Notes under the pieces: generated by a model | What the model saw: the letters and a program-made list of their open reading frames with translations, nothing else | Database searches by the model: none | What the model was told of the DNA's origin: nothing | Shown: in pieces, positions 13,821 to 64,000 of the stretch | How positions within the stretch are numbered: position 1 is the first letter of the stretch | Layout: every line of letters starts with the position of its first letter | Translations under genes and position numbers: made by a program | NCBI GenBank assembly: GCA_963971535.1 | Contig: OZ020589.1 | Coordinates: 84,882,964 to 84,946,963 of the forward strand | DNA from: Notolepis coatsorum | Lineage: Eukaryota > Chordata > Actinopteri > Aulopiformes > Paralepididae | DNA length: 64,000 nt | Reading direction: 5' to 3'

Positions 13821-13948
13821 AGTGTGGGTGACCTGGCGAAGCCAGGTTGCCACCCACACTATACATATCCATACTCTTTTTATTAGTGTGGGTGACCTGG
13901 CGAAGCCAGGTTGCCACCCACACTATACATATCCATACTCTTTTTATT
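13821..13948 (+). repeat. 64-bp hairpin module, two tandem copies (5' end of U1)
   Basis: Each 64-bp copy begins AGTGTGGGTGACCTGGCGAA and ends with CTCTTTTTATT. Its first 40 bases fold into a stem. The outer stem is AGTGTGGGTG with CACCCACACT (10 bp). The inner stem is CCTGGC with GCCAGG (6 bp), around a GAA loop. The core GCGAAGC is the sequence known for forming an extraordinarily stable DNA mini-hairpin. Single copies start U2, U4, U6, U7, U11 and U16. Four copies form the 5' end of inverted U8. Confidence 0.95.
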
Positions 13949-14973
13949 TATTTATTTATTCCACCGATTTTGCAAACACTTTGCAACACGTAAGCGTTCG
14001 CGCCCCATACACGTGAAAGGTATCAAAACGAGCGGCTTGCCTATGGCAACACCGGTCTCCGAACTCGTAAAGTTTCACCGCACCGTCTGGCTACGAATCG
14101 ACTTTAAACGGTAAAATTTCGGAAATACAGTGCAATTTAGAGTTTCAAACACTTTGAACACTTTGCAACACGTAAGCGTTCGCGCACCATACACGTGAAA
14201 GGTATCAAAACGAGCGGCTTGCCTATGGCAATTGCGGTCTTCGAACCCGTAAAAGTTTCACCGCACCGTCTGGCTACGAATCGACTTTAAACGTTAACAT
14301 TTCGGTCCCATTGGGAATGCATTGCATTTTAGAGTGTAGCAGCTGAAATAATCTTTTTCCCCCTACCTTGGGTGAATTGCGAGTGTGATCTCAATTTTGG
14401 ACGTAGAAATAAAACAAACACATCAAAACGATGACACGGCTGTCATCCCGCTCACAAAAGAAAAATAAATGGAATTGGACATTTCTATCTCAACTGACGA
14501 CCATTTGTTTGAAGGTTCTCCTCCCCATTGACCGCCATGCAATCGCCCTCTAGAAATCACATTTTTCACACTATTTTTTAGCCTTCTGTTCCGATCGCCG
14601 AAGGAGTGCCACAATATCGCACGAATGCCACAATATCGCGCACAACCCTTCGCCTACTCGTTGTAGTGCTCATGTGCGCGTCACAACGCTTCATCTCTTA
14701 TAGTTTTCTTTTAATCAACGTGACAATGCAGTCATGCATCTGCCTCCATAGAAATGCATTGGATAGAAAATATGCAAGTCATAGTGATTGCTTCACCTGT
14801 GTGGCTCATGGCTCACTCATGATTGGTTCAGCTGTGTGGCTCGTGGCTGAGCTGCCAATGACATCATCCACTTAACCCATCATTGGCCATCACTGTGTTG
14901 CAGTACTGAATTGCTGACAGCGCCCTCTGTCTTGTGGGTTGTGTCATTGTACTCAGTAGGGATATCCTCTTTC

Positions 14974-15424
14974 ATTTTTCATTGGTCCATGTTGACCACC
15001 TTTCATTGGTCCATGTTGACCACTCCCCCGATCCTTAGACCACGCCCCCTTAGGCCACACCCCCTCAGTGTATCTCTTGAACCGTTTGTCGTAGAGACTT
15101 GCGGATTGTGCCATTGGTCGATGTTGACCACCTTTCATTGGTCGATGTTGACCACTCCCCCTGTTGACCACCTTTCATTGGTCGATGTTGACCACTCCCC
15201 CGATCCTTAGACCACGCCCCCTTAGGCCACACCCCCTCAGTGTAACTCTTGAACCGTTTGTCGTAGAGACTTGGGGATTGTGCCATTGGTCGATGTTGAC
15301 CACCTTTCATTGGTCGATGTTGACCACTCCCCCGATCCTTAGACCACGCCCCCTTAGGCCACACCCCCTCAGTGTATCTCTTGAACCGTTTGTCGTAGAG
15401 ACTTGCGGATTGTGCCATTGTACT
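14974..15424 (+). promoter_or_regulatory. E block of U1: promoter-like sub-repeats
   Basis: Sub-repeats of about 132 bp (short form) or 167 bp (long form, best seen in U14). Each carries two ATTGG motifs (inverted CCAAT boxes), a CCACGCCCCC GC-box-like motif and a CCACACCCCC motif. CCAAT and GC/CACCC boxes bind NF-Y and Sp/KLF factors in vertebrates. No TATA box or start site is identifiable, so promoter activity is inference. Other E blocks: 19349-19915, 24494-24600 (truncated), 27116-27394, 32933-33327, 38365-38828, 42012-42175 (inverted), 44450-44736, 47771-48057, 51405-51688, 55630-56086, 57673-58579 and 63118-63396. U3 and U15 have none. Confidence 0.45.
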
Positions 15425-15426
15425 CG

Positions 15427-18056
15427 GTGTAATAGTGTAATAGTGTGTAATAGTGTAATAGTGTAATAGTGTGTAATAGTGTAATAGTGTGTAATAGTGT
15501 AATAGTGTAATAGTGTGTAATAGTGTGTAATAGTGTAATAGTGTAATAGTGTGTAATAGTGTAATATTGTGTAATAGTGTAATAGTGTGTAATAGTGTAA
15601 TAGTGTGTAATAGTGTAATAGTGTAATAGTGTGTAATAGTGTAATAGTGTGTAATAGTGTGTAATAGTGTAATAGTGTGTAACAGTGTCTAATAGTGTAA
15701 TAGTGTAATAGTGTGTAATAGTGTAATAGTGTAATAGTGTGTAATAGTGTAATAGTGTAATAGTGTGTAATAGTGTAATAGTGTGTAATAGTGTAATAGT
15801 GTGTAATAGTGTAATAGTGTGTAATAGTGTAATAGTGTGTAATAGTGTAATAGTGTAATAGTGTGTAATAGTGTAATAGTGTAATAGTGTGTAATAGTGT
15901 AATAGTGTGTAATAGTGTAATAGTGTAATAGTGTGTAATAGTGTAATAGTGTAATAGTGTGTAATAGTGTAATAGTGTGTAATAGTGTAATAGTGTGTAA
16001 TAGTGTAATAGTGTAATAGTGTGTAATAGTGTAATAGTGTGTAATAGTGTAATAGTGTAATAGTGTGTAATAGTGTAATAGTGTAATAGTGTGTAATAGT
16101 GTAATAGTGTGTAATAGTGTAATAGTGTGTAATAGTGTAATAGTGTGTAATAGTGTAATAGTGTAATAGTGTGTAATAGTGTAATAGTGTAATAGTGTGT
16201 AATAGTGTAATAGTGTGTAATAGTGTAATAGTGTAATAGTGTAATAGTGTGTAATAGTGTAATAGTGTAATAGTGTGTAATAGTGTAATAGTGTGTAATA
16301 GTGTAATAGTGTGTAATAGTGTAATAGTGTAATAGTGTGTAATAGTGTAATAGTGTGTAATAGTGTAATAGTGTGTAATAGTGTAATAGTGTAATAGTGT
16401 GTAATAGTGTGTAATAGTGTAATAGTGTGTAATAGTGTAATAGTGTGTAATAGTGTAATAGTGTGTAATAGTGTAATAGTGTGTAATAGTGTAATAGTGT
16501 GTAATAGTGTGTAATAGTGTAATAGTGTAATAGTGTGTAATAGTGTAATAGTGTGTAATAGTGTAATAGTGTGTAATAGTGTAATAGTGTAATAGTGTGT
16601 AATAGTGTAATAGTGTAATAGTGTGTAATAGTGTAATAGTGTGTAATAGTGTAATAGTGTAATAGTGTGTAATAGTGTAATAGTGTAATAGTGTGTAATA
16701 GTGTAATAGTGTGTAATAGTGTAATAGTGTGTAATAGTGTAATAGTGTAATAGTGTGTAATAGTGTGTAATAGTGTGTAATAGTGTGTAATAGTGTAATA
16801 GTGTAATAGTGTGTAATAGTGTAATAGTGTGTAATAGTGTAATAGTGTGTAATAGTGTAATAGTGTGTAATAGTGTAATAGTGTAATAGTGTGTAATAGT
16901 GTAATAGTGTAATAGTGTGTAATAGTGTAATAGTGTGTAATAGTGTAATAGTGTAATAGCGTGTAATAGTGTAATAGTGTGTAATAGTGTAATAGTGTGT
17001 AATAATGTAATAGTGTGTAATAGTGTAATAGTGTAATAGTGTGTAATAGTGTAATAGTGTGTAATAGTGTAATAGTGTGTAATAGTGTAATAGTGTAATA
17101 GTGTGTAATAGTGTGTAATAGTGTAATAGTGTGTAATAGTGTAATAGTGTGTAATAGTGTAATAGTGTGTAATAGTGTAATAGTGTGTAATAGTGTAATA
17201 GTGTGTAATAGTGTAATAGTGTAATAGTGTGTAATAGTGTAATAGTGTAATAGTGTGTAATAATGTAATAGTGTGTAATAGTGTAATAGTGTGTAATAGT
17301 GTAATAGTGTGTAATAGTGTAATAGTGTAATAGTGTGTAATAGTGTAATAGTGTGTAATAGTGTAATAGTGTAATAGTGTGTAATAGTGTAATAGTGTGT
17401 AATAGTGTAATAGTGTAATAGTGTGTAATAGTGTAATAGTGTAATAGTGTGTAATAGTGTAATAGTGTGTAATAGTGTAATAGTGTAATAGTGTGTAATA
17501 GTGTAATAGTGTAATAGTGTGTAATAGTGTAATAGTGTGTAATAGTGTAATAGTGTGTAATAGTGTGTAATAGTGTAATAGTGTGTAATAGTGTAATAGT
17601 GTAATAGTGTGTAATAGTGTAATAGTGTGTAATAGTGTAATAGTGTAATAGTGTGTAATAGTGTAATAGTGTGTAATAGTGTAATAGTGTAATAGTGTGT
17701 AATAGTGTAATAGTGTAATAGTGTAATAGTGTAATAGTGTAATAGTGTGTAATAGTGTAATAGTGTAATAGTGTAATAGTGTAATAGTGTGTAATAGTGT
17801 AATAGTGTAATAGTGTGTAATAGTGTAATAGTGTGTAATAGTGTAATAGTGTAATAGTGTAATAGTGCAATAGTGTGTAATAGTGTAATAGTGTTATAGT
17901 GTGTAATAGTGTAATAGTGTAATAGTGTAATAGTGTGTAATAGTGTAATAGTGTGTAATAGTGTAATAGTGTGTAATAGTGTAATAGTGTGTAATAGTGT
18001 GTAATATTGTGTAATAGTGTGTAATAGTGTAATATTGTGTAATAGTGTAATAGTGT
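15427..18056 (+). repeat. 8/10-bp minisatellite array of U1 (2.6 kb)
   Basis: An irregular string of GTGTAATA (8 bp) and GTGTGTAATA (10 bp). Rare variants include GTGCAATA (about 17864) and GTGTTATA (about 17891). The + strand is almost free of C. Every frame of the - strand is free of stops because neither unit contains one in any phase, so the apparent 952-codon frame through it is not a gene. Confidence 0.98.
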
Positions 18057-18261
18057 TGCGGGTTGTGTCATTACACTCAGTAGGGATATCCTCTTTGATT
18101 GGTCTATGTTGACCACTCCCCCGATCATTAGGCCGCGCCCCCTTTTTGTATCCTTTGAACCGTTTGTCATAGAGACTCGCGAGAGACCCTCTCCCCCGTT
18201 GGCCGGCGGTGCACAGGCGTCACCCACACTTTCACAATTTCCCCCGTGCGGAATTGTCTAG
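18057..18261 (+). other. Terminal G block with 3' hairpin and CTAG end (prototype)
   Basis: This ~205-bp block closes U1 and recurs, with few changes, at the end of every complete unit. It starts GCGGGTTGTGTCATT, carries GTCACCCACACT (the inverse of the unit's left end), and finishes with a hairpin of ACAATT...AATTGT arms around a C/G-rich loop, then CTAG. Other CTAG ends: 21084, 23575, 26271, 32019, 37453, 43596, 46853, 50174, 54781, 56828, 59749 and 62208. The next unit always starts with T. This resembles the 3' end of Helitrons (hairpin plus CTRR). Confidence 0.8.
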
Positions 18262-19916
18262 TTAGTGTGGGTGACCTGGCGAAGCCAGGTTGCCACCCAC
18301 ACTATACATATCCATACTCTTTTTATTTATTTATTCCACCGATTTTGCAAACACTTTGCAACACGTAAGCGTTCGCGCCCCATACACGTGAAAGGTATCA
18401 AAACGAGCGGCATGCCTATGGCAACACCGGTCTCCGAACTCGTAAAGTTTCACCGCACCGTCTGGCTACGAATCGACTTTAAACGGTAAAATTTCGGAAA
18501 TACAGTGCAATTTAGAGTTTCAAACACTTTGAACACTTTGCAACACGTAAGCGTTCGCGCACCATACACGTGAAAGGTATCAAAACGAGCGGCTTGCCTA
18601 TGGCAATTGCGGTCTTCGAACCCGTAAAAGTTTCACCGCACCGTCTGGCTACGAATCGACTTTAAACGGTAAAATTTCGGTCCCATTGGGAATGCATTGC
18701 ATTTTAGAGTGTAGCAGCTGAAATAATCTTTTTCCCCCTACCTTGGGTGAATTGCGAGTGTGATCTCAATTTTGGACGTAGAAATAAAACAAACACATCA
18801 AAACGATGACACGGCTGTCATCCCGCTCACAAAAGAAAAATAAATGGAATTGGACATTTCTATCTCAACTGACGACCATTTGTTTGAAGGTTCTCCTCCC
18901 CATTGACCGCCATGCAATCGCCCTCTAGAAATCACATTTTTCACACTATTTTTTAGCCTTCTGTTCCGATCGCCGAAGGAGTGCCACAATATCGCACGAA
19001 TGCCACAATATCGCGCACAACCCTTCGCCTACTCGTTGTAGTGCTCATGTGCGCGTCACAACGCTTCATCTCTTATAGTTTTCTTTTAATCAACGTGACA
19101 ATGCAGTCATGCATCTGCCTCCATAGAAATGCATTGGATAGAAAATATGCAAGTCATAGTGATTGCTTCACCTGTGTGGCTCATGGCTCACTCATGATTG
19201 GTTCAGCTGTGTGGCTCGTGGCTGAGCTGCCAATGACATCATCCACTTAACCCATCATTGGCCATCACTGTGTTGCAGTACTGAATTGCTGACAGCGCCC
19301 TCTGTCTTGTGGGTTGTGTCATTGTACTCAGTAGGGATATCCTCTTTCATTTTTCATTGGTCCATGTTGACCACCTTTCATTGGTCCATGTTGACCACTC
19401 CCCCGATCCTTAGACCACGCCCCCTTAGGCCACACCCCCTCAGTGTATCTCTTGAACCGTTTGTCGTAGAGACTTGCGGATTGTGCCATTGGTCGATGTT
19501 GACCACCTTTCATTGGTCGATGTTGACCACTCCCCCTGTTGACCACCTTTCATTGGTCGATGTTGACCACTCCCCCGATCCTTAGACCACGCCCCCTTAG
19601 GCCACACCCCCTCAGTGTATCTCTTGAACCGTTTGTCGTAGAGACTTGCGGATTGTGCCATTGTACTCAGTAGGGATATCCTCTTTCATTTTTCATTGGT
19701 CCATGTTGACCCCCTTTCATTGGTCGATGTTGACCACTCCCCCGATCCTTAGACCACGCCCCCTTAGGCCACAGTTCACGGTTCAGTGTATCTCTTGAAC
19801 CGTTTGTCGTAGAGACTTGCGGATTGTGCCATTGGTCGATGTTGACCACCTTTCATTGGTCGATGTTGACCACTCCCCCGATCCTTAGACCACGCCCCCT
19901 TAGGCCACACCCCCTT

Positions 19917-20620
19917 TAAAAAAATCCGAAAAATCCGAAAACTCGGAAAAATCCCAAAACTCGGAAAAATCTAAAATCCGAAAAAGTTCAAAAACTCGGA
20001 AAAATCCCAAAACCCGAAAACTCGGAAAAATCCGAAAACTCGGAAACATCAAAAATCCGAAAAAGTTCAAAAACTCGGAAAAATCCCAAAACCCGAAAAC
20101 TCGGGAAAATCCGAAAAATCCGAAAACTCGGAAACATCAAAAATCCGAAAAAGTTCAAAAACTCGGAAAAGTCCGAAAACTCGGAAAAATCCAAAAACTC
20201 TGAAAATTCCGAAAACTCGGAAACATCAAAAATCCGAAAAAGTTCAAAAACTCGGAAAAATCCGAAAACTCGGAAACATCAAAAATCCGAAAAAGTTCAA
20301 AAACTCGGAAAAGTCCGAAAACCCGAAAACTCGGAAAAATCCAAAAACTCGGAAAAATCCGAAAACTCGGAAAAATCCGAAAACTCGGAAACATCAAAAA
20401 TCCGAAAAAGTTCAAAAATTCGGAAAAGTCCGAAAACCCGAAAACCCGGAAAAATGCAAAAACTCGGAAAATTCCGAAAACTCGGAAACATCAAAAATCC
20501 GAAAAAGTTCAAAAACTCGGAAAAGTCCGAAAACCCAAAAACTCTGAAAAATCCGAATACTCGGAAACATCAAAAATCCGAAAAAGTTCAAAAACTCGGA
20601 AAAGTCCGAAAACCGGAAAA
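19917..20620 (+). repeat. TCCGAAAA-type minisatellite of U2
   Basis: Imperfect copies of an ~18-bp word such as ACTCGGAAAAATCCGAAA. They are grouped into larger repeats of up to ~142 bp, marked by CATCAAAAATCCGAAAAAG. The strand is A-rich with few T. It sits precisely between the CACACCCCCTTT of an E sub-repeat and the first TAGTGTG of the 8/10-bp array. Sister arrays are in U6, U7 and U14. Confidence 0.95.
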
Positions 20621-20621
20621 A

Positions 20622-20879
20622 TAGTGTGTAATAGTGTAATAGTGTGTAATAGTGTAATAGTGTAATAGTGTGTAATAGTGTGTAATAGTGTGTAATAGTG
20701 TAATAGTGTGTAATAGTGTAATAGTGTAATAGTGTGTAATAGTGTAATAGTGTTATAGTGTAATAGTGTAATAGTGTGTAATAGTGTAATAGTGTGTAAT
20801 AGTGTGTAATAGTGTAATAGTGTGTAATAGTGTAATAGTGTGTAATAGTGTGTAATAGTGTAATATTGTGTAATAGTGT
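20622..20879 (+). repeat. Short 8/10-bp array of U2
   Basis: About 258 bp of GTGTAATA/GTGTGTAATA, with a GTGTTATA landmark near 20751. It has the same order of variants as the right-hand part of the long arrays. Confidence 0.95.
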
Positions 20880-21084
20880 TGCGGGTTGTGTCATTGCACT
20901 CAGTAGGGATATCCTCTTTGATTGGTCTATGTTGACCACTCCCCCGATCCTTAGGCCGCGCCCCCTTTTTGTATCCTTTGAACCGTTTGTCATAGAGACT
21001 CGCGAGAGACCCTCTCCCCCGTTGGCCGGCGGTGCACAGGCGTCACCCACACTTTCACAATTTCCCCCGCGCGGAATTGTCTAG

Positions 21085-23575
21085 TATATACTTATTATCT
21101 ATATTCTCAGATTTTCCAAACAACACTCGTGCCAGAGCGTTCGCGCCCCATACATGTGAAAGGTATCAAAACGACCGGCTTGCTCCAACTCGATGTGCTA
21201 TTCGAACTCGTAAAGTTTCACCGCACCGTCTGGCTACGAATCGACTTTAAACGGTAAAATTTCGGAAATACAGTGCAATTTAGAGTTTCAAACACTTTGC
21301 AACACGTAAGCGTTCGCGCACCATACACGTGAAAGGTATCAAAACGAGCGGCTTGCCTATGGCAACTGCGGTCTTCGAACTCGTAAAAGTTTCACCGCAC
21401 CGTCTGGCTACGAATCGACTTTAAACGGTAAAATTTCGGTCCCATTGGGAATGCATTGAATTTTAGAGTGTAGCAGCTGAAATAATCTTTTTCCCCCTAC
21501 CTTGGGTGAATTGCGAGTGTGATCTCAATTTTGGACGTAGAAATAAAACAAACACATCAAAACGATGACACGGCTGTCATCCCGCTCACAAAAGAAAAAT
21601 AAATGGAATTGGACATTTCTATCTCAACTGACGACCATTTGTTTGAAGGTTCTCCTCCCCATTGACCGCCATGCAATCGCCCTCTAGAAATAAATTTTTT
21701 TTTAGCCTTCTGTTCCGATCGCCGAAGGAGTGCCACAATATCGCACGAATGCCACAATCTCGCGCACAACCCTTCGCCTACTCGTTGTAGTGCTCTTGTG
21801 CGAGTCACAACGCTTCATCTCTTATAGTTTTCTTTTAATCAACGTGACAATGCAGTCATGTAAAGAAATGTCAGAATATGCAAGTCATTGTGCTCATGGC
21901 TGATTGGTTCAGGCTTAACAGCTGTGAGGCTCAGGGCTCATGGCTGAGCTGACCTGCCAATGACATCATCCACTTAACCCATCATTGGCCATCACTGTGT
22001 TGCACTACTGAATTGCTGGACAGCGCCCTCTGTCTTGTGGGTTGTGTCATTGTACTCAGTAGGAATAGTGTGTAATAGTGTAATAGTGTAATAGTGTGTA
22101 ATAGTGTAATAGTGTGTAATAGTGTAATAGTGTAATAGTGTAATAGTGTGTAATAGTGTAATAGTGTAATAGTGTGTAATAGTGTAATAGTGTGTAATAG
22201 TGTAATAGTGTAATAGTGTGTAATAGTGTAATAGTGTAATAGTGTGTAATAGTGTAATAGTGTGTAATAGTGTGTAATAGTGTAATAGTGTGTAATAGTG
22301 TAATAGTGTGTAATAGTGTAATAGTGTGTAATAGTGTGTAATAGTGTAATAGTGTAATAGTGTGTAATAGTGTAATAGTGTAATAGTGTGCAATAGTGTA
22401 ATAGTGTAATAGTGTGTAATAGTGTAATAGTGTAATAGTGTGTAATAGTGTAATAGTGTAATAGTGTGTAATAGTGTAATAGTGTAATAGTGTGTAATAG
22501 TGTAATAGTGTGTAATAGTGTAATAGTGTAATAGTGCAATAGTGTGTAATAGTGTAATAGTGTGTAATAGTGTAATAGTGTTATAGTGTGTAATAGTGTA
22601 ATAGTGTAATAGTGTGTAATAGTGTAATAGTGTGTAATAGTGTAATAGTGTAATAGTGTGTAATAGTGTAATAGTGTGTAATAGTGTAATAGTGTGTAAT
22701 AGTGTGTAATAGTGTAATAGTGTGTAATAGTGTAATAGTGTGTAATAGTGTAATAGTGTAATAGTGTAATAGTGTGTAATAGTGTAATAGTGTGTAATAG
22801 TGTGTAATAGTGTAATAGTGTAATAGTGTGTAATAGTGTAATAGTGTAATAGTGTAATAGTGTGTAATAGTGTAATAGTGTGTAATAGTGTGTAATAGTG
22901 TAATAGTGTAATAGTGTGTAATAGTGTAATAGTGTAATAGTGTGTAATAGTGTGTAATAGTGTAATAGTGTGTAATAGTGTAATAGTGTGTAATAGTGTG
23001 TAATAGTGTAATAGTGTGTAATAGTGTGTAATAGTGTAATAGTGTAATAATGTGTAATAGTGTGTAATAATGTAATAGTGTGTAATAGTGTAATAGTGTG
23101 TAATAGTGTAATAGTGTAATAGTGTGTAATAGTGTGTAATAGTGTAATAGTGTGTAATAGTGTAATAGTGTGTAATAGTGTAATAGTGTGTAATAGTGTG
23201 TAATAGTGTAATAGTGTGTAGTAATAGTGTAATAGTGTGTAATAGTGTGTAATAGTGTAATATTGTGTAATAGTGTGTAATAGTGTGTAATAGTGTAATA
23301 GTGTGTAATAGTGTGTAATAGTGTGTAATAGTGTGTAATAGTGTAATATTGTGTAATAGTGTAATAGTGTTGCGGGTTGTGTCATTGCACTCAGTAGGGA
23401 TATCCTCTTTGATTGGTCTATGTTGACCACTCCCCCGATCCTTAGGCCGCGCCCCCTTTTTGTATCCTTTGAACCGTTTGTCATAGAGACTCGCGAGAGA
23501 CCCTCTCCCCCGTTGGCCGGCGGTGCACAGGCGTCACCCACACTTTCACAATTTCCCCCGCGCGGAATTGTCTAG
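21085..23575 (+). repeat. Satellite unit U3, divergent 5' end, no E block
   Basis: It begins TATATACTTATTATCTATAT in place of the hairpin module. It has two C blocks, the first divergent (CCGGCTTGCTCCAACTCGAT). The D block is shortened: parts of the segment around 21680-21920 differ from or are missing relative to other units. The 8/10-bp array (22064-23370) starts directly after CTCAGTAGG, with no E block. U15 (59750-62208) has the same peculiar start and the same losses. Confidence 0.92.
22064..23370 (+). repeat. 8/10-bp array of U3 (1.3 kb)
   Basis: GTGTAATA/GTGTGTAATA mixture. The GTGCAATA...GTGTTATA landmark lies at about 22533-22586, some 790 bp from the right end. A GTGTGTAGTAATA variant occurs near 23217. 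Both details recur in U15. Confidence 0.97.
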
Positions 23576-34024: not shown

Positions 34025-34025
34025 A

Positions 34026-43263: not shown

Positions 43264-43298
<35 letters not shown>

Positions 43299-43299
43299 T
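43264..43299 (+). repeat. (AAT)n microsatellite at the U8/U9 junction
   Basis: About twelve AAT units link the 5' end of inverted U8 to a truncated + strand unit. On the U8 strand it reads ATT repeats, extending the normal TTATT that precedes AGTGTGGG. Confidence 0.97.
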
Positions 43300-43596
43300 G
43301 TAATAGTGTGTAATAGTGTAATAGTGTGTAATAGTGTGTAATAGTGTAATAGTGTGTAATAGTGTAATATTGTGTAATAGTGTAATAGTGTTGCGGGTTG
43401 TGTCATTGCACTCAGTAGGGATATCCTCTTTGATTGGTCTATGTTGACCACTCCCCCGATCCTTAGGCCGCGCCCCCTTTTTGTATCCTTTGAACCGTTT
43501 GTCATAGAGACTCGCGAGAGACCCTCTCCCCCGTTGGCCGGCGGTGCACAGGCGTCACCCACACTTTCACAATTTCCCCCGCGCGGAATTGTCTAG
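43300..43596 (+). repeat. Satellite unit fragment U9 (end of array plus G block)
   Basis: Only about 90 bp of 8/10-bp array and a full G block ending in CTAG at 43596. Everything 5' of the array is missing. Confidence 0.92.
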
Positions 43597-49800: not shown

Positions 49801-50174
49801 TAATAGTGTAATAGTGTGTAATAGTGTAATAGTGCAATAGTGTGTAATAGTGTTATAGTGTGTAATAGTGTAATAGTGTAATAGTGTGTAATAGTGTAAT
49901 AGTGTGTAATAGTGTGTAATAGTGTAATAGTGTGTAATAGTGTAATATTGTGTAATAGTGTAATAGTGTTGCGGGTTGTGTCATTGCACTCAGTAGGGAT
50001 ATCCTCTTTGATTGGTCTATGTTGACCACTCCCCCGATCCTTAGGCCGCGCCCCCTTTTTGTATCCTTTGAACCGTTTGTCATAGAGACTCGCGAGAGAC
50101 CCTCTCCCCCGTTGGCCGGCGGTGCACAGGCGTCACCCACACTTTCACAATTTCCCCCGCGCGGAATTGTCTAG
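46854..50174 (+). repeat. Satellite unit U11, recent duplicate of U10 plus one hairpin module
   Basis: It is 3321 bp against 3257 bp for U10, and the 64-bp difference equals one hairpin module. E block 47771-48057, array 48058-49969, G block. The few differences seen include GATCATTAG (44641) against GATCCTTAG (47962), CGCCCTCTAG against CGCACTCTAG, and one base in CTTTTAATC. Confidence 0.93.
48058..49969 (+). repeat. 8/10-bp array of U11 (1.9 kb)
   Basis: The translated - strand of this array and that of U10 read the same over more than 600 codons, so the unit order is the same. Confidence 0.97.
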
Positions 50175-53100: not shown

Positions 53101-54781
53101 GTGTAATAGTGTAATAGTGTAATAGTGTGTAATAGTGTAATAGTGTAATAGCGTGTAATAGTGTAATAGTGTAATAGTGTGTAATAGTGTAATAGTGTGT
53201 AATAGTGTAATAGTGTAATAGTGTGTAATAGTGTAATAGTGTAATAGTGTAATAGCGTGTAATAGTGTAATAGTGTGTAATAGTGTAATAGTGTGTAATA
53301 GTGTAATAGTGTGTAATAGTGTAATAGTGTAATAGTGTGTAATAGTGTAATAGTGTAATAGTGTGTAATAGTGTAATATTGTGTAATAGTGTAATAGTGT
53401 AATAGTGTGTAATAGTGTAATAGTGTGTAATAGTGTGTAATAGTGTAATAGTGTGTAATAGTGTAATAGTGTGTAATAGTGTAATAGTGTGTAATAGTGT
53501 AATAGTGTGTAATAGTGTAATAGTGTGTAATAGTGTAATAGTGTGTAATAGTGTAATAGTGTAATAGTGTGTAATAGTGTAATATTGTGTAATAGTGTAA
53601 TAGTGTAATAGTGTGTAATAGTGTAATAGTGTGTAATAGTGTAATAGTGTGTAATAGTGTAATAGTGTAATAGTGTGTAATAGTGTGTAATAGTGTAATA
53701 GTGTGTAATAGTGTAATAGTGTGTAATAGTGTAATAGTGTAATAGTGTAATAGTGTAATAGTGTGTAATAGTGTAATAGTGTAATAGTGTGTAATAGTGT
53801 AATAGTGTAATAGTGTAATAGTGTGTAATAGTGTAATAGTGTGTAATAGTGTAATAGTGTGTAACAGTGTAATAGTGTGTAATAGTGTGTAATAGTGTAA
53901 TAGTGTAATAGTGTGTAATAGTGTAATAGTGTAATAGTGTAATAGTGTAATAGTGTGTAATAGTGTAATAGCGTAATAGTGTAATAGTGTGTAATAGTGT
54001 AATAGTGTAATAGTGTGTAATAGTGTAATAGTGTGTAATAGTGCAATAGTGTAATAGTGTGTAATAGTGTGTAATAGTGTAATAGTGTAATAGTGTAATA
54101 GCGTGTAATAGTGTAATAGTGTAATAGTGTGTAATAGTGTAATAGTGTAATAGTGTGTAATAGTGTAATAGTGTGTAATAGTGTAATAGTGTAATAGTGT
54201 AATAGCGTGTAATAGTGTAATAGTGTAATAGTGTGTAATAGTGTAATAGTGTAATAGTGTGTAATAGTGTAATAGTGTAATAGTGTGTAATAGTGTGTAA
54301 TAGTGTAATAGTGTAATAGTGTAATAGCGTGTAATAGTGTAATAGTGTAATAGTGTAATAGTGTGTAATAGTGTGTAATAGTGTAATAGTGTGTAATAGT
54401 GTAATAGTGTAATAGTGTGTAATAGTGTAATAGTGTAATAGTGTAATAGCGTGTAATAGTGTAATAGTGTAATAGTGTGTAATAGTGTAATAGTGTAATA
54501 GTGTGTAATAGTGTAATAGTGTAATAGTGTGTAATAGTGTGTAATAGTGTAATATTGTGTAATAGTGTAATAGTGTTGCGGGTTGTGTCATTGCACTCAG
54601 TAGGGATATCCTCTTTGATTGGTCTATGTTGACCACTCCCCCGATCCTTAAGCCGCGCCCCCTTTTTGTATCCTTTGAACCGTTTGTCATAGAGACTCGC
54701 GAGAGACCCTCTCCCCTGTTGGCCGGCGGTGCACAGGCGTCACCCACACTTTCACAATTTCCCCCGCGCGGAATTGTCTAG
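50175..54781 (+). repeat. Satellite unit U12 with a partial C/D duplication at its 5' end
   Basis: A broken first copy (50175-50520, C block and the start of D up to GAAAAATAAA) is followed by a restart at 50521 with TGCCACCCACACTATACATA, which is the 3' arm of a hairpin module. A full C, D, E (51405-51688), array (51689-54576) and G block follow. G has CCTTAAGCCGCG and CCCCTGTTGG as private changes. Confidence 0.92.
51689..54576 (+). repeat. 8/10-bp array of U12 (2.9 kb)
   Basis: GTGTAATA/GTGTGTAATA with many GCGTAATA/GCGTGTAATA variants (about 52790, 52923, 53046, 53150, 53252, 53969, 54100, 54203, 54326 and 54448). Several are about 102-126 bp apart, hinting at a higher-order repeat. Confidence 0.97.
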
Positions 54782-56828
54782 TTATTTATTTATTCTTTAT
54801 TCCACCGATTTTGCAAACACTTTGCAACACGTAAGCGTTCGCGCCCCATACACGTGAAAGGTATCAAAACGAGCGGCTTGCCTATGGCAACACCGGTCTC
54901 CGAACTCGTAAAGTTTCACCGCACCGTCTGGCTACGAATCGACTTTAAACGGTAAAATATCGGTCCCATTGGGAATGCATTGCATTTTAGAGTGTAGCAG
55001 CTGAAATAATCTTTTTCCCCCTACCTTGGGTGAATTGCGAGTGTGATCTCAATTTTGGACGTAGAAATAAAACAAACACATCAAAACGATGACACGGCTG
55101 TCAACCCGCTCACAAAAGAAAAATAAATGGAATTGGACATTTCTATCTCAACTGACGACCATTTGTTTGAAGGTTCTCCTCCCCATTGACCGCCATGCAA
55201 TCGCACTCTAGAAATCACATTTTTCACACTATTTTTTAGCCTTCTGTTCCGATCGCCGAAGGAGTGCCACAATATCGCACGAATGTCACAATATCGCGCA
55301 CAACCCTTCGCCTACTCGTTGTAGTGCTCATGTGCGCGTCACAACGCTTCATCTCTTATAGTTTTCTTTTAATCAATGTGACAATGCAGTCATGCATCTG
55401 CCTCCATAGAAATGCATTAGATAGAAAATATGCAAGTCATAGTGATTGCTTCACCTGTGTGGCTCATGGCTCACTCATGATTGGTTCAGCTGTGTGGCTC
55501 GTGGCTGAGCTGCCAATGACATCATCCACTTAACCCATCATTGGCCATCACTGTGTTGCACTACTGAATTGCTGACAGCGCCCTCTGTCTTGTGGGTTGT
55601 GTCATTGTACTCAGTAGGGATATCCTCTTTCATTTTTCATTGGTCCATGTTGACCCCCTTTCATTGGTCGATGTTGACCACTCCCCCGATCCTTAGACCA
55701 CGCCCCCTTAGGCCCCACCCCCTCAGTGTATCTCTTGAACCGTTTGTCGTAGAGACTTGCGGATTGTGCCATTAGTCGATGTTGACCACCTTTCATTGGT
55801 CGATGTTGACCACTCCCCCTGTTGACCACCTTTCATTGGTCGATGTTGACCACTCCCCCGATCATTAGACCACGCCCCCTTAGGCCACACCCCCTCAGTG
55901 TAACTCTTGAACCGTTTGTCGTAGAGACTTGGGGATTGTGCCATTGGTCGATGTTGACCACCTTTCATTGGTCGATGTTGACCACTCCCCCGATCCTTAG
56001 ACCACGCCCCCTTAGGCCACACCCCCTCAGTGTATCTCTTGAACCGTTTGTCGTAGAGACTTGCGGATTGTGCCATTGTACTCGGTGTAATAGTGTAATA
56101 GTGTGTAATAGTGTAATAGTGTGTAATAGTGTAATAGTGTAATAGTGTGTAATAGTGTGTAATAGTGTAATAGTGTAATAGTGTAATATTGTGTAATAGT
56201 GTAATAGTGTAATAGTGTGTAATAGTGTAATAGTGTGTAATAGTGTAATAGTGTAATAGTGTGTAATAGTGTAATAGTGTGTAATAGTGTGTAATAGTGT
56301 AATAGTGTAATCGTGTGTAATAGTGTAATAGTGTCTAATAGTGTAATAGTGTCTAATAGTGTGTAATAGTGTAATAGTGTAATAGTGTGTAATAGTGTGT
56401 AATAGTGTAATAGTGTAATAGTGTGTAATAGTGTAATAGTGTGTAATAGTGTAATAGTGTAATAGTGTGTAATAGTGTAATGGTGTGTAATAGTGTAATA
56501 GTGTGTAATAGTGTAATAGTGTGTAATAGTGTAATAGTGTAATAGTGTAATAGTGTGTAATAGTGTAATAGTGTAATAGTGTGTAATAGTGTAATAGTGT
56601 GTAATAGTGTAATAGTGTGTAATAGTGTAATAGTGTAATAGTGTGTAATAGTGTGTAATAGTGTAATATCCTTAGACCACGCCCCCTTAGGCCACACCTT
56701 AGGCTGCGCCCCCTTTTTGTATCCTTTGAACCGTTTGTCATAGACTCGCGAGAGACCCTCTCCCGTTGGCCGGCGGTGCACAGGCGTCACCCACACTTTC
56801 ACAATTTCCCCTGCGCAGAATTGTCTAG
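54782..56828 (+). repeat. Satellite unit U13 (subfamily B), short, hybrid E/G end
   Basis: No hairpin module. C and D blocks, E block 55630-56086, a short array (56087-56669), then an E fragment (CCTTAGACCACGCCCCCTTA) fused to the second half of G (TTAGGCTGCGCCCCC...). G also has small private losses (CATAGACTCGCG, CTCTCCCGTTGG). CTAG at 56828. It is the shortest complete unit. Confidence 0.92.
56087..56669 (+). repeat. 8/10-bp array of U13 (0.6 kb)
   Basis: A short array with GTGTCTAATA (about 56332 and 56350), GTGTAATC and GTGTAATGG variants. It ends abruptly in E-type sequence. Confidence 0.96.
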
Positions 56829-57672
56829 TTATTCTTTATTCTTTATTCCACCGATTTTGCAAACACTTTGCAACACGTAAGCGTTCGCGCCCCATACACG
56901 TGAAAGGTATCAAAACGAGCGGCTTGCCTATGGCAACACCGGTCTCCGAACTCGTAAAGTTTCACCGCACCGTCTGGCTACGAATTGACTTTAAACGGTA
57001 AAATATCGGTCCCATTGGGAATGCATTGCATTTTAGAGTGTAGCAGCTGAAATAATCTTTTTCCCCCTACCTTGGGTGAATTGCGAGTGTGATCTCAATT
57101 TTGGACGTAGAAATAAAACAAACACATCAAAACGATGACACGGCTGTCAACCCGCTCACAAAAGAAAAATAAATGGAATTGGACATTTCTATCTCAACTG
57201 ACGACCATTTGTTTGAAGGTTCTCCTCCCCATTGACCGCCATGCGATCGCACTCTAGAAATCACATTTTTCACACTATTTTTTAGCCTTCTGTTCCGATC
57301 GCCGAAGGAGTGCCACAATATCGCACGAATGTCACAATATCGCGCACAACCCTTCGCCTACTCGTTGTAGTGCTCATGTGCGCGTCACAACGCTTCATCT
57401 CTTATAGTTTTCTTTTAATCAATGTGACAATGCAGTCATGCATCTGCCTCCATAGAAATGCATTGGATAGAAAATATGCAAGTCATAGTGATTGCTTCAC
57501 CTGTGTGGCTCATGGCTCACTCATGATTGGTTCAGCTGTGTGGCTCGTGGCTGAGCTGCCAATGACATCATCCACTTAACCCATCATTGGCCATCACTGT
57601 GTTGCAGTACTGAATTGCTGACAGCGCCCTCTGTCTTGTGGGTTGTGTCATTGTACTCAGTAGGGATATCCT

Positions 57673-58579
57673 CTTTCATTTTTCATTGGTCCATGTTGAC
57701 CACCTTTCATTGGTCGATGTTGACCACTCCCCCAATCCTTAGACCACGCCCCCTTAGGCCACACCCCCTCAGTGTATCTCTTGAACCATTTGTCGTAGAG
57801 ACTTGCGGATTGTGCCATTGTACTCAGTAGGGATATCCTCTTTCATTTTTCATTGGTCCATGTTGACCCCCTTTCATTGGTCGATGTTGACCACTCCCCC
57901 GATCCTTAGACCACGCCCCCTTAGGCCACACCCCCTCAGTGTATCTCTTGAACCGTTTGTCGTAGAGACTTGCGGATTGTGCCATTGTACTCAGTAGGGA
58001 TATCCTCTTTCATTTTTCATTGGTCCATGTTGACCACCTTTCATTGGTCGATGTTGACCACTCCCCTGATCCTTAGACCACGCCCCCTTAGGCCACACCC
58101 CCTCAGTGTATCTCTTGAACCGTTTGTCGTAGAGACTTGCGGATTGTGCCATTGGTCGATGTTGACCACCTTTCATTGGTCGATGTTGACCACTCCCCCT
58201 GTTGACCACCTTTCATTGGTCGATGTTGACCACTCCCCCGATCCTTAGACCACGCCCCCTTAGGCCACACCCCCTCAGTGTATCTCTTGAACCGTTTGTC
58301 GTAGAGACTTGCGGATTGTGCCATTGTACTCAGTAGGGATATCCTCTTTCATTTTTCATTGGTCCATGTTGACCCCCTTTCATTGGTCGATGTTGACCAC
58401 TCCCCCGATCCTTAGACCACGCCCCCTTAGGCCACAGTTCACGGTTCAGTGTATCTCTTGAACCGTTTGTCGTAGAGACTTGCGGATTGTGCCATTGGTC
58501 GATGTTGACCACCTTTCATTGGTCGATGTTGACCACTCCCCCGATCCTTAGACCACGCCCCCTTAGGCCACACCCCCTT
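57673..58579 (+). promoter_or_regulatory. Largest E block (U14), about six promoter-like sub-repeats
   Basis: The long form repeats every 167 bp: TTGTACTCAG at 57651, 57818 and 57985. Each copy has ATTGG pairs, TGTTGACCACTCCCCCGATC, CCACGCCCCC and CCACACCCCC. The short 132-bp form follows. Function is inferred from motif content only. Confidence 0.45.
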
Positions 58580-59266
58580 TAAAAAAATCCGAAAAATCCG
58601 AAAACTCGGAAAAATCCCAAAACTCGGAAAAATCTAAAATCCGAAAAAGTTCAAAAACTCGGAAAAATCCCAAAACCCGAAAACTCGGAAAAATCCGAAA
58701 ACTCGGAAACATCAAAAATCCGAAAAAGTTCAAAAACTCGGAAAAATCCCAAAACCCGAAAACTCGGGAAAATCCGAAAAATCCGAAAACTCGGAAACAT
58801 CAAAAATCCGAAAAAGTTCAAAAACTCGGAAAAGTCCGAAAACTCGGAAAAATCCAAAAACTCGGAAAATTCCGAAAACTCGGAAACATCAAAAATCCGA
58901 AAAAGTTCAAAAACTCGGAAAAATTCGAAAACTCGGAAACATCAAAAATCCGAAAAAGTTCAAAAACTCGGAAAAGTCCGAAAACCCGAAAACTCGGAAA
59001 AATCCAAAAACTCGGAAAAATCCGAAAACTCGGAAACATCAAAAATCCGAAAAAGTTCAAAAATTCAGAAAAGTCCGAAAACCCGAAAACCCGGAAAAAT
59101 GCAAAAACTCGGAAAATTCCGAAAACTCGGAAACATCAAAAATCCGAAAAAGTTCAAAAACTCGGAAAAGTCCGAAAACCCAAAAACTCTGAAAAATCCG
59201 AATACTCGGAAACATCAAAAATCCGAAAAAGTTCAAAAACTCGGAAAAGTCCGAAAACCGGAAAAA
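58580..59266 (+). repeat. TCCGAAAA-type minisatellite of U14
   Basis: Near-copy of the U2 array 19917-20620, with small differences such as one missing piece near its start and a few base changes. Confidence 0.95.
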
Positions 59267-59544
59267 TAGTGTGTAATAGTGTAATAGTGTGTAATAGTGT
59301 AATAGTGTAATAGTGTGTAATAGTGTGTAATAGTGTGTAATAGTGTAATAGTGTGTAATAGTGTAATAGTGTAATAGTGTGTAATAGTGTAATAGTGTTA
59401 TAGTGTGTAATAGTGTAATAGTGTAATAGTGTGTAATAGTGTAATAGTGTGTAATAGTGTGTAATAGTGTAATAGTGTGTAATAGTGTAATAGTGTGTAA
59501 TAGTGTGTAATAGTGTGTAATAGTGTAATATTGTGTAATAGTGT
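59267..59544 (+). repeat. Short 8/10-bp array of U14
   Basis: Matches the U2 array in order, apart from a few unit gains and losses. GTGTTATA near 59396. Confidence 0.95.
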
Positions 59545-59749
59545 TGCGGGTTGTGTCATTGCACTCAGTAGGGATATCCTCTTTGATTGGTCTATGTTGA
59601 CCACTCCCCCGATCCTTAGGCCGCGCCCCCTTTTTGTATCCTTTGAACCGTTTGTCATAGAGACTCGCGAGAGACCCTCTCCCCCGTTGGCCGGCGGTGC
59701 ACAGGCGTCACCCACACTTTCACAATTTCCCCCGCGCGGAATTGTCTAG

Positions 59750-62208
59750 TATATACTTATTATCTATATTCTCAGATTTTCCAAACAACACTCGTGCCAG
59801 AGCGTTCGCGCCCCATACATGTGAAAGGTATCAAAACGACCGGCTTGCTCCAACTCGATGTGCTATTCGAACTCGTAAAGTTTCACCGCACCGTCTGGCT
59901 ACGAATCGACTTTAAACGGTAAAATTTCGGAAATACAGTGCAATTTAGAGTTTCAAACACTTTGCAACACGTAAGCGTTCGCGCACCATACACGTGAAAG
60001 GTATCAAAACGAGCGGCTTGCCTATGGCAACTGCGGTCTTCGAACTCGTAAAAGTTTCACCGCACCGTCTGGCTACGAATCGACTTTAAACGGTAAAATG
60101 TCGGTCCCATTGGGAATGCATTGAATTTTAGAGTGTAGCAGCTGAAATAATCTTTTTCCCCCTACCTTGGGTGAATTGCGAGTGTGATCTCAATTTTGGA
60201 CGTAGAAATAAAACAAACACATCAAAACGATGACACGGCTGTCATCCCGCTCACAAAAGAAAAATAAATGGAATTGGACATTTCTATCTCAACTGACGAC
60301 CATTTGTTTGAAGGTTCTCCTCCCCATTGACCGCCATGCAATCGCCCTCTAGAAATCAATTTTTTTTTAGCCTTCTGTTCCGATCGCCGAAGGAGTGCCA
60401 CAATATCGCACGAATGCCACAATCTCGCGCACAACCCTTCGCCTACTCGTTGTAGTGCTCTTGTGCGAGTCACAACGCTTCATCTCTTATAGTTTTCTTT
60501 TAATCAACGTGACAATGCAGTCATGTAAAGAAATGTCAGAATATGCAAGTCATTGTGCTCATGGCTGATTGGTTCAGGCTTAACAGCTGTGAGGCTCAGG
60601 GCTCATGGCTGAGCTGACCTGCCAATGACATCATCCACTTAACCCATCATTGGCCATCACTGTGTTGCACTACTGAATTGCTGGACAGCGCCCTCTGTCT
60701 TGTGGGTTGTGTCATTGTACTCAGTAGGAATAGTGTGTAATAGTGTAATAGTGTAATAGTGTGTAATAGTGTAATAGTGTGTAATAGTGTAATAGTGTAA
60801 TAGTGTGTAATAGTGTAATAGTGTAATAGTGTGTAATAGTGTAATAGTGTGTAATAGTGTAATAGTGTAATAGTGTGTAATAGTGTAATAGTGTAATAGT
60901 GTGTAATAGTGTAATAGTGTGTAATAGTGTGTAATAGTGTAATAGTGTGTAATAGTGTAATAGTGTGTAATAGTGTAATAGTGTGTAATAGTGTGTAATA
61001 GTGTAATAGTGTAATAGTGTGTAATAGTGTAATAGTGTAATAGTGTGCAATAGTGTAATAGTGTAATAGTGTGTAATAGTGTAATAGTGTAATAGTGTGT
61101 AATAGTGTAATAGTGTAATAGTGTGTAATAGTGTAATAGTGTAATAGTGTGTAATAGTGTAATAGTGTGTAATAGTGTAATAGTGTAATAGTGCAATAGT
61201 GTGTAATAGTGTAATAGTGTGTAATAGTGTAATAGTGTTATAGTGTGTAATAGTGTAATAGTGTAATAGTGTGTAATAGTGTAATAGTGTGTAATAGTGT
61301 AATAGTGTAATAGTGTGTAATAGTGTAATAGTGTGTAATAGTGTAATAGTGTGTAATAGTGTGTAATAGTGTAATAGTGTGTAATAGTGTAATAGTGTGT
61401 AATAGTGTAATAGTGTAATAGTGTAATAGTGTGTAATAGTGTAATAGTGTGTAATAGTGTGTAATAGTGTAATAGTGTAATAGTGTGTAATAGTGTAATA
61501 GTGTAATAGTGTGTAATAGTGTAATAGTGTGTAATAGTGTGTAATAGTGTAATAGTGTAATAGTGTGTAATAGTGTAATAGTGTGTAATAGTGTGTAATA
61601 GTGTAATAGTGTGTAATAGTGTAATAGTGTGTAATAGTGTGTAATAGTGTAATAGTGTGTAATAGTGTGTAATAGTGTAATAGTGTAATAATGTGTAATA
61701 GTGTGTAATAGTGTAATAGTGTGTAATAGTGTAATAGTGTGTAATAGTGTAATAGTGTGTAATAGTGTGTAATAGTGTAATAGTGTGTAATAGTGTAATA
61801 GTGTGTAATAGTGTAATAGTGTGTAATAGTGTGTAATAGTGTAATAGTGTGTAGTAATAGTGTAATAGTGTGTAATAGTGTGTAATAGTGTAATAGTGTG
61901 TAATAGTGTGTAATAGTGTGTAATAGTGTAATAGTGTGTAATAGTGTGTAATAGTGTGTAATAGTGTGTAATAGTGTAATATTGTGTAATAGTGTAATAG
62001 TGTTGCGGGTTGTGTCATTGCACTCAGTAGGGATATCCTCTTTGATTGGTCTATGTTGACCACTCCCCCGATCCTTAGGCCGCGCCCCCTTTTTGTATCC
62101 TTTGAACCGTTTGTCATAGAGACTCGCGAGAGACCCTCTCCCCCGTTGGCCGGCGGTGCACAGGCGTCACCCACACTTTCACAATTTCCCCCGCGCGGAA
62201 TTGTCTAG
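59750..62208 (+). repeat. Satellite unit U15, near-copy of U3
   Basis: The same TATATACTTATTATC start, double C block, shortened D block and absence of an E block as U3. Array 60730-62003, G block ending in CTAG at 62208. Differences from U3 include GTCGGTCCC for TTCGGTCCC and AAATCAATTTT for AAATAAATTTT. Confidence 0.93.
60730..62003 (+). repeat. 8/10-bp array of U15 (1.3 kb)
   Basis: Nearly the same order as U3, with the GTGCAATA...GTGTTATA landmark at about 61192-61242 and the GTGTGTAGTAATA oddity near 61852. Confidence 0.97.
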
Positions 62209-64000
62209 TTAGTGTGGGTGACCTGGCGAAGCCAGGTTGCCACCCACACTATACATATCCATACTCTTTTTATTATTTATTTATTCTTTATTCCACCGAT
62301 TTTGCAAACACTTTGCAACACGTAAGCGTTCGCGCCCCATACACGTGAAAGGTATCAAAACGAGCGGCTTGCCTATGGCAACACCGGTCTCCGAACTCGT
62401 AAAGTTTCACCGCACCGTCTGGCTACGAATCGACTTTAAACGGTAAAATTTCGGTCCCATTGGGAATGCATTGCATTTTAGAGTGTAGCAGCTGAAATAA
62501 TCTTTTTCCCCCTACCTTGGGTGAATTGCGAGTGTGATCTCAATTTTGGACGTAGAAATAAAACAAACACATCAAAACGATGACACGGCTGTCAACCCGC
62601 TCACAAAAGAAAAATAAATGGAATTGGACATTTCTATCTCAACTGACGACCATTTGTTTGAAGGTTCTCCTCCCCATTGACCGCCATGCAATCGCACTCT
62701 AGAAATCACATTTTTCACACTATTTTTTAGCCTTCTGTTCCGATCGCCGAAGGAGTGCCACAATATCGCACGAATGTCACAATATCGCGCACAACCCTTC
62801 GCCTACTCGTTGTAGTGCTCATGTGCGCGTCACAACGCTTCATCTCTTATAGTTTTCTTTTAATCAATGTGACAATGCAGTCATGCATCTGCCTCCATAG
62901 AAATGCATTGGATAGAAAATATGCAAGTCATAGTGATTGCTTCACCTGTGTGGCTCATGGCTCACTCATGATTGGTTCAGCTGTGTGGCTCGTGGCTGAG
63001 CTGCCAATGACATCATCCACTTAACCCATCATTGGCCATCACTGTGTTGCAGTACTGAATTGCTGACAGCGCCCTCTGTCTTGTGGGTTGTGTCATTGTA
63101 CTCAGTAGGGATATCCTCTTTCATTCGTCCATGTTGACCCCCTTTCATTGGTCGATGTTGACCACTCCCCCGATCCTTAGACCACGCCCCCTTAGGCCAC
63201 ACCCCCTCAGTGTATCTCTTGAACCGTTTGTCGTAGAGACTTGCGGATTGTGCCATTGGTCGATGTTGACCACCTTTCATTGGTCGATGTTGACCACTCC
63301 CCCGATCCTTAGACCACGCCCCCTTAGGCCACACCCCCTCAGTGTATCTCTTGAACCGTTTGTCGTAGAGACTTGCGGATTGTGCCATTGTACTCGGTGT
63401 AATAGTGTAATAGTGTGTAATAGTGTAATAGTGTGTAATAGTGTAATAGTGTAATAGTGTGTAATAGTGTAATAGTGTGTAATAGTGTAATAGTGTAATA
63501 GTGTGTAATAGTGTAATAGTGTAATAGTGTGTAATAGTGTAATATTGTGTAATAGTGTAATAGTGTATAATAGTGTAATAGTGTGTAATAGTGTAATAGT
63601 GTGTAATAGTGTAATAGTGTGTAATAGTGTGTAATAGTGTAATAGTGTAATAGTGTGTAATAGTGTAATAGTGTCTAATAGTGTAATAGTGTGTAATGGT
63701 GTAATAGTGTAATAGTGTGTAATAGTGTAATAGTGTAATAGTGTGTAATAGTGTAATAGTGTGTAATAGTGTAATAGTGTGTAATAGTGTAAGTGTAATA
63801 GTGTGTAATAGTGTAATAGTGTGTAATAGTGTAATAGTGTGTAATAGTGTAAAAGTGTGTAATAGTGTAATAGTGTAATAGTGTAATAGTGTGTAATAGT
63901 GTAATAGTGTAATAGTGTAATAGTGTGTAATAGTGTAATAGTGTAATAGTGTGTAATAGTGTAATAGTGTAATAGTGTGTAATAGTGTAATAGTGTGTAA
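62209..64000 (+). repeat. Satellite unit U16, cut by the window edge
   Basis: One hairpin module, one C block, D block of subfamily B, E block 63118-63396 with the TCATTCGTCCATG marker of U5. The array from 63397 follows the start of the U5 array, including GTGTCTAATA, GTGTAAGTG and GTGTAAAAGTG. The array continues beyond the window. Confidence 0.92.
63397..64000 (+). repeat. 8/10-bp array of U16 (partial)
   Basis: Its order matches the first 600 bp of the U5 array (27395 onward) at an offset of 36,002 bp. Continues past the edge. Confidence 0.97.

What the first reader, a model, noticed from the sequence alone, without database searches (positions are those of the whole stretch)
13821..64000. 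Head-to-tail array of a putative rolling-circle (Helitron/Helentron-like) element turned satellite
Seen directly: every unit ends in a hairpin plus CTAG. Its left end AGTGTGGGTGAC is inverted as GTCACCCACACT near the right end. A strong hairpin sits at the left end, the core is a minisatellite, and copies abut as CTAG|T. Known: Helitrons end in a hairpin plus CTRR and can form tandem copies. Helentron-derived HINE elements have subterminal inverted repeats and core tandem repeats, and some have grown into satellites (DINE-TR1 in Drosophila, pearl-type elements in bivalves). Inference: this fish satellite arose the same way. I do not know of this unit being described.
Basis: partly seen in the sequence, partly recalled or inferred. 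Interest (0 to 1): 0.75.

Follow-up and report, generated by a model that had tools for sequence, protein, structure and literature searches.

The report
Jumping gene that built satellite DNA
The repeat array consists of defective copies of a rolling-circle jumping gene (a Helentron) whose intact, protein-coding relatives sit elsewhere in the same genome, and it seems to have grown partly because new copies insert beside old ones at a landing site each copy carries.

Summary
Observation mostly right; interpretation well supported. The window's genome (3.4 Gb) holds 2,351 copies of the right end and 1,747 of the left hairpin (up to 2 mismatches; reversed-pattern controls 0). A copy on C1 sharing both ends with the window's units encodes 2,771 residues with Rep, PIF1 helicase and C-terminal endonuclease domains: a Helentron. 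The window has no coding part of it but keeps 111 identical bp of its 3' region in one unit. Copies insert at TT (34 of 34 left, 34 of 34 right host flanks used); two of three insertions tested have paralogous empty sites. So the window is an array of non-autonomous (HINE-type) Helentrons. Correction: only 7 of 14 units carry the AGTGTGGG left end. Hairpin-less units follow another copy's CTAG (312, against 364 with hairpin, exact patterns); of 19 further cores fetched on C1, none is a clean hairpin-less copy beside host DNA. That fits self-insertion beside an older copy's 5' hairpin plus unequal exchange; results against the simplest form exist. Such self-insertion was proposed for Fusarium Helitrons (PMC5148889, passages). 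Predicted 3' hairpin weak. Host taxon untested.

The parts
13816..64000 (+). Array of non-autonomous Helentron units, continuing at least to G000:C13:84964963 (18 kb beyond the window)
13260..13820 (+). Left flank: 3' end of what looks like an L2/CR1-type LINE, tail GCGCTATATAAATTAAATGAATTATT = insertion target (family name recalled, not tested)
   Evidence: similar tails precede other copies
13819..13947 (+). Two tandem H blocks (64-bp 5' terminal hairpin module)
18262..18326 (+). H block (5' end; hairpin; 5' subterminal inverted repeat AGTGTGGGTGAC)
23576..23640 (+). H block
32020..32084 (+). H block
37454..37518 (+). H block
43010..43266 (-). Four tandem H blocks of the inverted element, bordered by (TAA)n
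46854..46918 (+). H block; this unit equals the preceding H-less unit except for H and 3 substitutions
62209..62273 (+). H block
26272..26300 (+). H-less unit start (CTAG|TTATT...TTCCACCG); others begin at 43597, 50175, 54782, 56829
21085..21135 (+). Type-B unit start (CTAG|TATATACTTATTATC); another at 59750
18713..19320 (+). Conserved core block C (one of 14 full copies on the + strand; one inverted at 42189-42796, one 134-bp fragment at 50389)
19920..20620 (+). AAAACTCGG-type minisatellite, also present in the autonomous element
15427..18056 (+). GTGTAATA-type minisatellite lying where the autonomous copy has its coding region (one of several such stretches)
37174..37284 (+). 111 bp identical to the autonomous copy's sequence just before its R block: remnant of an internal deletion
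18057..18261 (+). R block (205 bp, 3' end): 3' subterminal inverted repeat GTCACCCACACT, weak hairpin, CTAG
20880..21084 (+). R block
23371..23575 (+). R block
26067..26271 (+). R block
31815..32019 (+). R block
37281..37453 (+). R block (first 32 positions not matched)
40060..40258 (-). R block of the inverted element, joined head-to-head with a partial R block (39950-40063) at a palindrome centred on 40061/40062
43392..43596 (+). R block
46649..46853 (+). R block
49970..50174 (+). R block
54577..54781 (+). R block
56697..56828 (+). R block (partial)
59545..59749 (+). R block
62004..62208 (+). R block
56751..61751 (+). Segment repeated 11,305 bp further on (into the sequence beyond the window): higher-order repeat, sign of unequal exchange

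Best explanation
The array is made of non-autonomous Helentron (HINE-type, Helitron2 lineage) elements. The units keep the core block and 3' end, and half of them the 5' hairpin end, of a larger autonomous Helentron; the coding region is missing and a GTGTAATA minisatellite lies in its place. The Rep/helicase/endonuclease protein of the autonomous copies presumably moves them by rolling-circle replication. New copies insert at TT in TTATT-like sites such as (TTA)n tracts and LINE tails. Such a site also lies just inside the element's own 5' hairpin and again after CTAG in tandem joints. Copies that land there produce head-to-tail joints CTAG|TT, runs of 5' hairpins and hairpin-less units. Unequal exchange then duplicates blocks. 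Shown: shared ends, autonomous partner, a deletion remnant, TT insertion with empty sites, copies with host flanks, tandem joints, association of hairpin-less units with a preceding CTAG in the samples examined, a higher-order repeat. Inferred: rolling-circle movement in trans, self-insertion as the seeding step, unequal exchange as the growth step.
For: Autonomous copy with H, core, A and R blocks and a 2,771-residue frame with Rep, PIF1 and endonuclease domains (motifs HIH near 1513 and YMLSY near 1746, motif meaning recalled; phmmer match to Helraiser 7lcc E 2.5e-20). 42 of 65 Helitron_like_N matches lie in open frames of at least 2,700 residues (counted by hand). No match of the protein in the window, but 111 identical bp of the autonomous copy's 3' region at 37174-37284. 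2,351 right ends and 1,747 left hairpins, reversed control 0. Host flanks TT/TT in 34 of 34 and 34 of 34 used. Empty sites at 28 and 12 paralogous places for 2 of 3 joined-flank blocks searched; 9 fetched and aligned, 7 with TT and 2 with TG at the joint. Exact joints: CTAG then H-less core 312, CTAG then H 364. Of 19 C1 cores fetched because no exact H or CTAG joint was listed: 15 host-flanked, each starting with an altered H; 2 with a 5'-cut H remnant; 1 after CTAG; 1 after an internal R fragment. Window units 43597-46853 and 46854-50174 differ by the 64-bp H and 3 substitutions. The sequence next to H resembles the host target. 11,305-bp offset repeat over about 5 kb.
Against: Exact H-H joints (194; the pattern sees only the 64-bp spacing) are fewer than H-less joints (312); simple nested insertion predicts equality. 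Reading the exact-match C1 lists by hand, strict bracket balance of hairpins and ends fails in the arrays at 44.65-44.68 and 73.37-73.43 Mb unless hairpins were lost, mutated or blocks amplified; 6 kb upstream of the first held another H-less unit, not the missing hairpins. Among 13 neighbouring H pairs on C1 the spacing is 64 bp in 10 (others 63, 59, 121), although free choice among TT sites should also give 67-68. The predicted 3' hairpin is no better than shuffles. Transposition itself was not observed.
Confidence: 0.8

Rival explanations
1. Rolling-circle read-through or a joined-end circle made concatemers that were integrated as ready-made tandem arrays, as proposed for centromeric plant Helitrons and termination bypass.
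For: Direct CTAG|TTAGTGTG joints are frequent (364) and are what a joined-end circle would give; joined ends are reported by PCR for a Fusarium Helitron2 element (PMC5148889 abstract and passages).
Against: A concatemer should carry H in every unit, yet 312 of the 676 joints counted by the two exact patterns are H-less; window units run from 2.0 to 5.7 kb, leaving out the 6.1-kb interval that holds the inverted element and the cut last one, and core blocks differ by up to 51 substitutions.
Confidence: 0.2
2. H is a 64-bp VNTR: hairpin-mediated slippage between flanking TTA repeats deletes or duplicates it, giving 0, 1 or several H without self-insertion.
For: Window units 43597-46853 and 46854-50174 differ by exactly 64 bp plus 3 substitutions; 10 of 13 H-H spacings on C1 are 64 bp; the hairpin is strong; CTAG|TTA...TTA microhomology would give the same joint.
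Against: Slippage should also delete H in copies beside host DNA, but none of the 15 host-flanked cores fetched, nor the 2 with a 5'-cut H, is cleanly H-less (one contig, 19 of 29 unassigned cores fetched), whereas 312 of 676 CTAG-flanked units are.
Confidence: 0.2
3. An ordinary satellite whose ends resemble a transposon by chance.
For: Part of the array shows satellite-type higher-order repetition.
Against: Autonomous partner with the same ends, copies with host flanks, and empty sites.
Confidence: 0.01

Closest known systems
Helentrons and HINEs / DINE-1 (PMC4067079: abstract start, passages and one section seen)
   Same: Subterminal inverted repeats with a palindrome or hairpin at the 5' end, palindrome near the 3' end, TT insertion, endonuclease in the autonomous partner, internal tandem repeats in some non-autonomous copies.
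   Different: Here whole multi-kb units, not only internal repeats, form long head-to-tail arrays, with autonomous copies in or beside some arrays; the 3' end is CTAG, which that paper reports for a Phytophthora proto-Helentron.
FoHeli elements of Fusarium (Helitron2; PMC5148889: abstract and passages seen)
   Same: Asymmetric inverted repeats, hairpins at both ends in some subgroups, TNAT^T insertion in two subgroups, proposed self-insertion giving several 5' ends with one 3' end; a three-copy tandem is reported in Metarhizium acridum.
   Different: Here H-less and multi-H joints are counted in hundreds and lie in satellite arrays, so their dependence on a preceding 3' end can be tested.
Tandem arrays of centromeric plant Helitrons (Xiong et al. 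2016; not read, seen only as described in PMC12628747 passages)
   Same: Tandem arrays of Helitron parts, multiple 5' ends with single 3' ends.
   Different: There the model is rolling-circle amplification of truncated templates; here the 14 window units keep 13 right ends.
DINE-TR1 of Drosophila and Helitron-linked satellites of Crassostrea (listing and passages only; details recalled)
   Same: Satellite DNA derived from Helentron-like elements.
   Different: Those expand internal repeats; here the whole element is the repeat unit.

Membership tests
Helentron / HINE | Autonomous partner with Rep and PIF1 helicase sharing both termini | tested here: met
   H 100%, R 98% (positions 9-205 of 205), core 96.7% identity to the window's blocks; Helitron_like_N E 8.4e-38, PIF1 E 2.5e-24. 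One copy read in full.
Helentron / HINE | C-terminal endonuclease domain in the autonomous protein | tested here: met
   Exo_endo_phos at 2560-2761 of 2771, E 2.8e-14
Helentron / HINE | Subterminal inverted repeats near the 5' end and some 40-60 bp before the 3' end | tested here: met
   AGTGTGGGTGAC within 2 nt of the 5' end; GTCACCCACACT starts 43 nt from the 3' end
Helentron / HINE | Palindrome/stem-loop near the 3' end | tested here: inconclusive
   Inverted repeat CAATT..AATTG at the 13 ends but folding no better than shuffles
Helentron / HINE | Insertion in a TT dinucleotide without further target duplication | tested here: met
   34 of 34 and 34 of 34 host flanks used; 7 of 9 aligned empty sites have TT, 2 have TG
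Helentron / HINE | Phylogenetic placement of the Rep/helicase among Helentrons | not tested
   No tree was built
Helentron / HINE | Rolling-circle transposition catalysed by the partner protein | not testable with these tools
   Needs an assay
Canonical Helitron (Helitron1) | 5'-TC end and A^T insertion site | tested here: not met
   5' end (T)TAGTG and TT sites; only 3' CTAG fits CTRR

The most novel reading that the evidence does not exclude
The element is a self-seeding satellite: it carries its preferred target beside its own 5' hairpin and restores it at each tandem joint, so each insertion makes the next neighbouring insertion likelier, and transposition itself, not only recombination, builds multi-kb satellite arrays with autonomous copies embedded in them.
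Probability: 0.5. Interest if true: 0.65.

Novelty: new variant of a known kind. Interest (0 to 1): 0.55.

Why it matters
How transposons become satellites is usually inferred from dead remnants. Here a coding element with long open Rep/helicase/endonuclease frames, copies beside host DNA, empty sites, small clusters and long arrays are in one genome, so seeding by self-insertion can be separated from rolling-circle read-through and from unequal exchange by counting joints and by experiment.

Tried and rejected
Alternative 5' initiation (elements that start at TTATT without H): not supported as main route, because no clean host-flanked H-less copy was among the cores fetched (19 of the 29 unassigned cores among the first 100 on C1 were fetched, 10 were not). 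Strict bracket model of nesting: tried by hand on C1 lists, it fails (see evidence against). Relative in viral contigs: one scan with 1,001 residues of the protein found none (the tool says records of the window's own genome may be left out). Pfam on 10 frames from the window's first 13.7 kb: no family above its cut-off, two weak matches below it. Host species: not determined. Literature: the listings showed no title or abstract describing this unit; that is not proof that none exists, since most subscription journals are not held. Rows dropped before counts: one of 20 fetched left flanks (L072, preceded by a cut H and minisatellite) and 4 of 19 unassigned cores were left out of the 34 left flanks; 10 of the 30 loci were left out of the 34 right flanks because element sequence follows.
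Full report
What is there. The array starts at 13816-13821 next to the tail of what looks like an L2/CR1-type LINE (name recalled) and fills most of the rest of the window. It continues at least 18 kb further on the contig. On the + strand there are 13 right ends...AATTGTCTAG followed by T. A 205-bp right block (R), a 608-bp core block (C) and internal minisatellites recur in the units. The left-end block (H, 64 bp) is a strong hairpin (-18.7 kcal/mol, 0 of 200 shuffles as good) and is an optional module: 7 of 14 unit starts have it, 5 start at TTATT...TTCCACCG, 2 at TATATACTTATT. One element is inverted and carries four H blocks.

What it is. In the window's own genome (3.42 Gb) the right end occurs 2,351 times and the H hairpin 1,747 times with up to 2 mismatches; the reversed patterns occur 0 times. 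A search with the Helitron_like_N family gave 65 matches, 42 of them in open frames of at least 2,700 residues (counted by hand). One copy was read: three H blocks, the C block, the AAAACTCGG minisatellite, a short GTGTAATA stretch, a 2,771-residue frame and the R block ending in GTCTAG, about 20 kb in all including a nested retrotransposon frame. The protein has Helitron_like_N, DUF6570, PIF1 and a C-terminal endonuclease domain, motifs that look like the HUH and two-tyrosine motifs of Helitron Rep (recalled) and matches the Helraiser structure (7lcc, E 2.5e-20). Rep, helicase and endonuclease together mark Helentrons (PMC4067079 passages; PMC5148889 passages). The window gives no tblastn match to the protein, but 111 bp at 37174-37284, just before an R block, are identical to the sequence just before the R block of the autonomous copy, as an internal deletion would leave.

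Ends and target. Behind the right end, 20 of 30 loci continue directly into sequence that is not the element; of the other ten, seven continue into an H-less unit, one into a type-B unit and two into H blocks. These 30 are the first listed of 2,351, all on C1; five of the 20 belong to one 6-kb tandem repeat, L050 and L051 share their flank, and one (L053) reaches another H after a (TTA)n tract. Host flanks end in TT on the left (19 of the 20 first fetched, plus 15 of 19 later ones; 34 of 34 used) and start with TT on the right (34 of 34 used); 22 of 34 right flanks begin TTATTATT. By eye, 6 of the 19 left flanks are LINE tails like the window's. Joined flanks of three insertions were searched: two matched 28 and 12 paralogous places spanning the joint, and nine fetched places align through it, seven with TT and two with TG where the element sits; the third gave no spanning hit. 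So insertion is at TT and leaves TT on both sides; whether one T each belongs to the element or TT is duplicated cannot be told.

How arrays form. Exact-pattern counts: H directly after CTAG 364, H-less core after CTAG 312, H after H 194, H before core 881, cores 1,917, type-B starts 110. The patterns differ in length and strictness, so the counts do not add up to one census. Of the first 100 cores on C1, 56 have an exact H, 15 follow CTAG, 29 neither. Of those 29, 19 were fetched: 15 are host-flanked and still begin with H, altered; 2 have a 5'-cut H remnant (one of them, L114, lies 4.4 kb behind another H); 1 follows CTAG; 1 follows an internal R fragment. In this sample H-less units depend on a preceding copy. 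The sequence right after H (TTTTTATT then ATT/TATT repeats) looks like the host target, so a copy inserted there leaves an H in front and an H-less unit behind. This is the self-insertion already proposed for Fusarium Helitron2 elements (PMC5148889, abstract and passages). Two window units differ only by H and 3 substitutions. An 11,305-bp offset repeat shows block duplication. Against the simple model: H-H joints are fewer than H-less joints, bracket balance fails in two arrays read by hand, and 10 of 13 H-H spacings are 64 bp; contraction and amplification may account for this but were not tested. A copy with two H blocks and empty paralogues (C1:174261839-174265974) suggests that composite 5' ends can move as a unit; later duplication of H is not excluded.

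Autonomous copies in arrays. Comparing the lists by hand (the last two capped and exact), Rep matches lie within about 30 kb of tandem joints at C1:73.38, C1:129.98, C6:120.27, C7:152.91, C7:152.99 and C8:45.38 Mb; others in the listed range, such as C1:222.90, C1:281.16, C1:307.05 and C4:118.20 Mb, have no listed joint that near.

Novelty. Helentrons, HINEs, tandem Helitrons, Helitron-derived satellites and 5' self-insertion are all described. New, as far as the listings show, is this element and the scale: the whole unit acting as a multi-kb satellite with autonomous partners in or beside some of the arrays and countable joint types.

Noticed in passing
window 39950-40258: Near-perfect palindromic head-to-head joint of two 3' ends (arms match for 112 bp with one mismatch), both lacking the final GTCTAG, centred on AATT; could be a fold-back product or an assembly artefact.
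   Followed up: partly
window 39463-39949: Sequence not seen in the other units I read, with a 51-bp minisatellite (CTCATATAGAGAGTGAG...), next to the inverted element.
   Followed up: no
window 43264-43298: (TAA)11 tract beside the four inverted H blocks, i.e. a host-like (TTA)n target inside the array.
   Followed up: no
L039-L041 (C1:73.364-73.390 Mb): The autonomous copy contains a Copia-type retrotransposon frame (614 residues, minus strand) and a shorter reverse-transcriptase-like frame; families judged by eye.
   Followed up: no
P0001 124-340 and about 985-1190: An N-terminal region occurring twice by eye; the first copy matches PDB 8add ('ATP-dependent DNA helicase', 213 residues, E 3.4e-37), possibly a protease-like domain (recalled).
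   Followed up: no
C1:17575541-17602911: Five right ends at about 6-kb spacing, each with an H, separated by other DNA: a tandem repeat that carries one element per unit.
   Followed up: partly
C1:74789448-74811384: Six elements in a row separated by some 50-65 bp rather than abutting; the spacers were not read.
   Followed up: no
window 50175-50903: Unit with a 381-bp internal duplication joining a core fragment to a partial H block.
   Followed up: no
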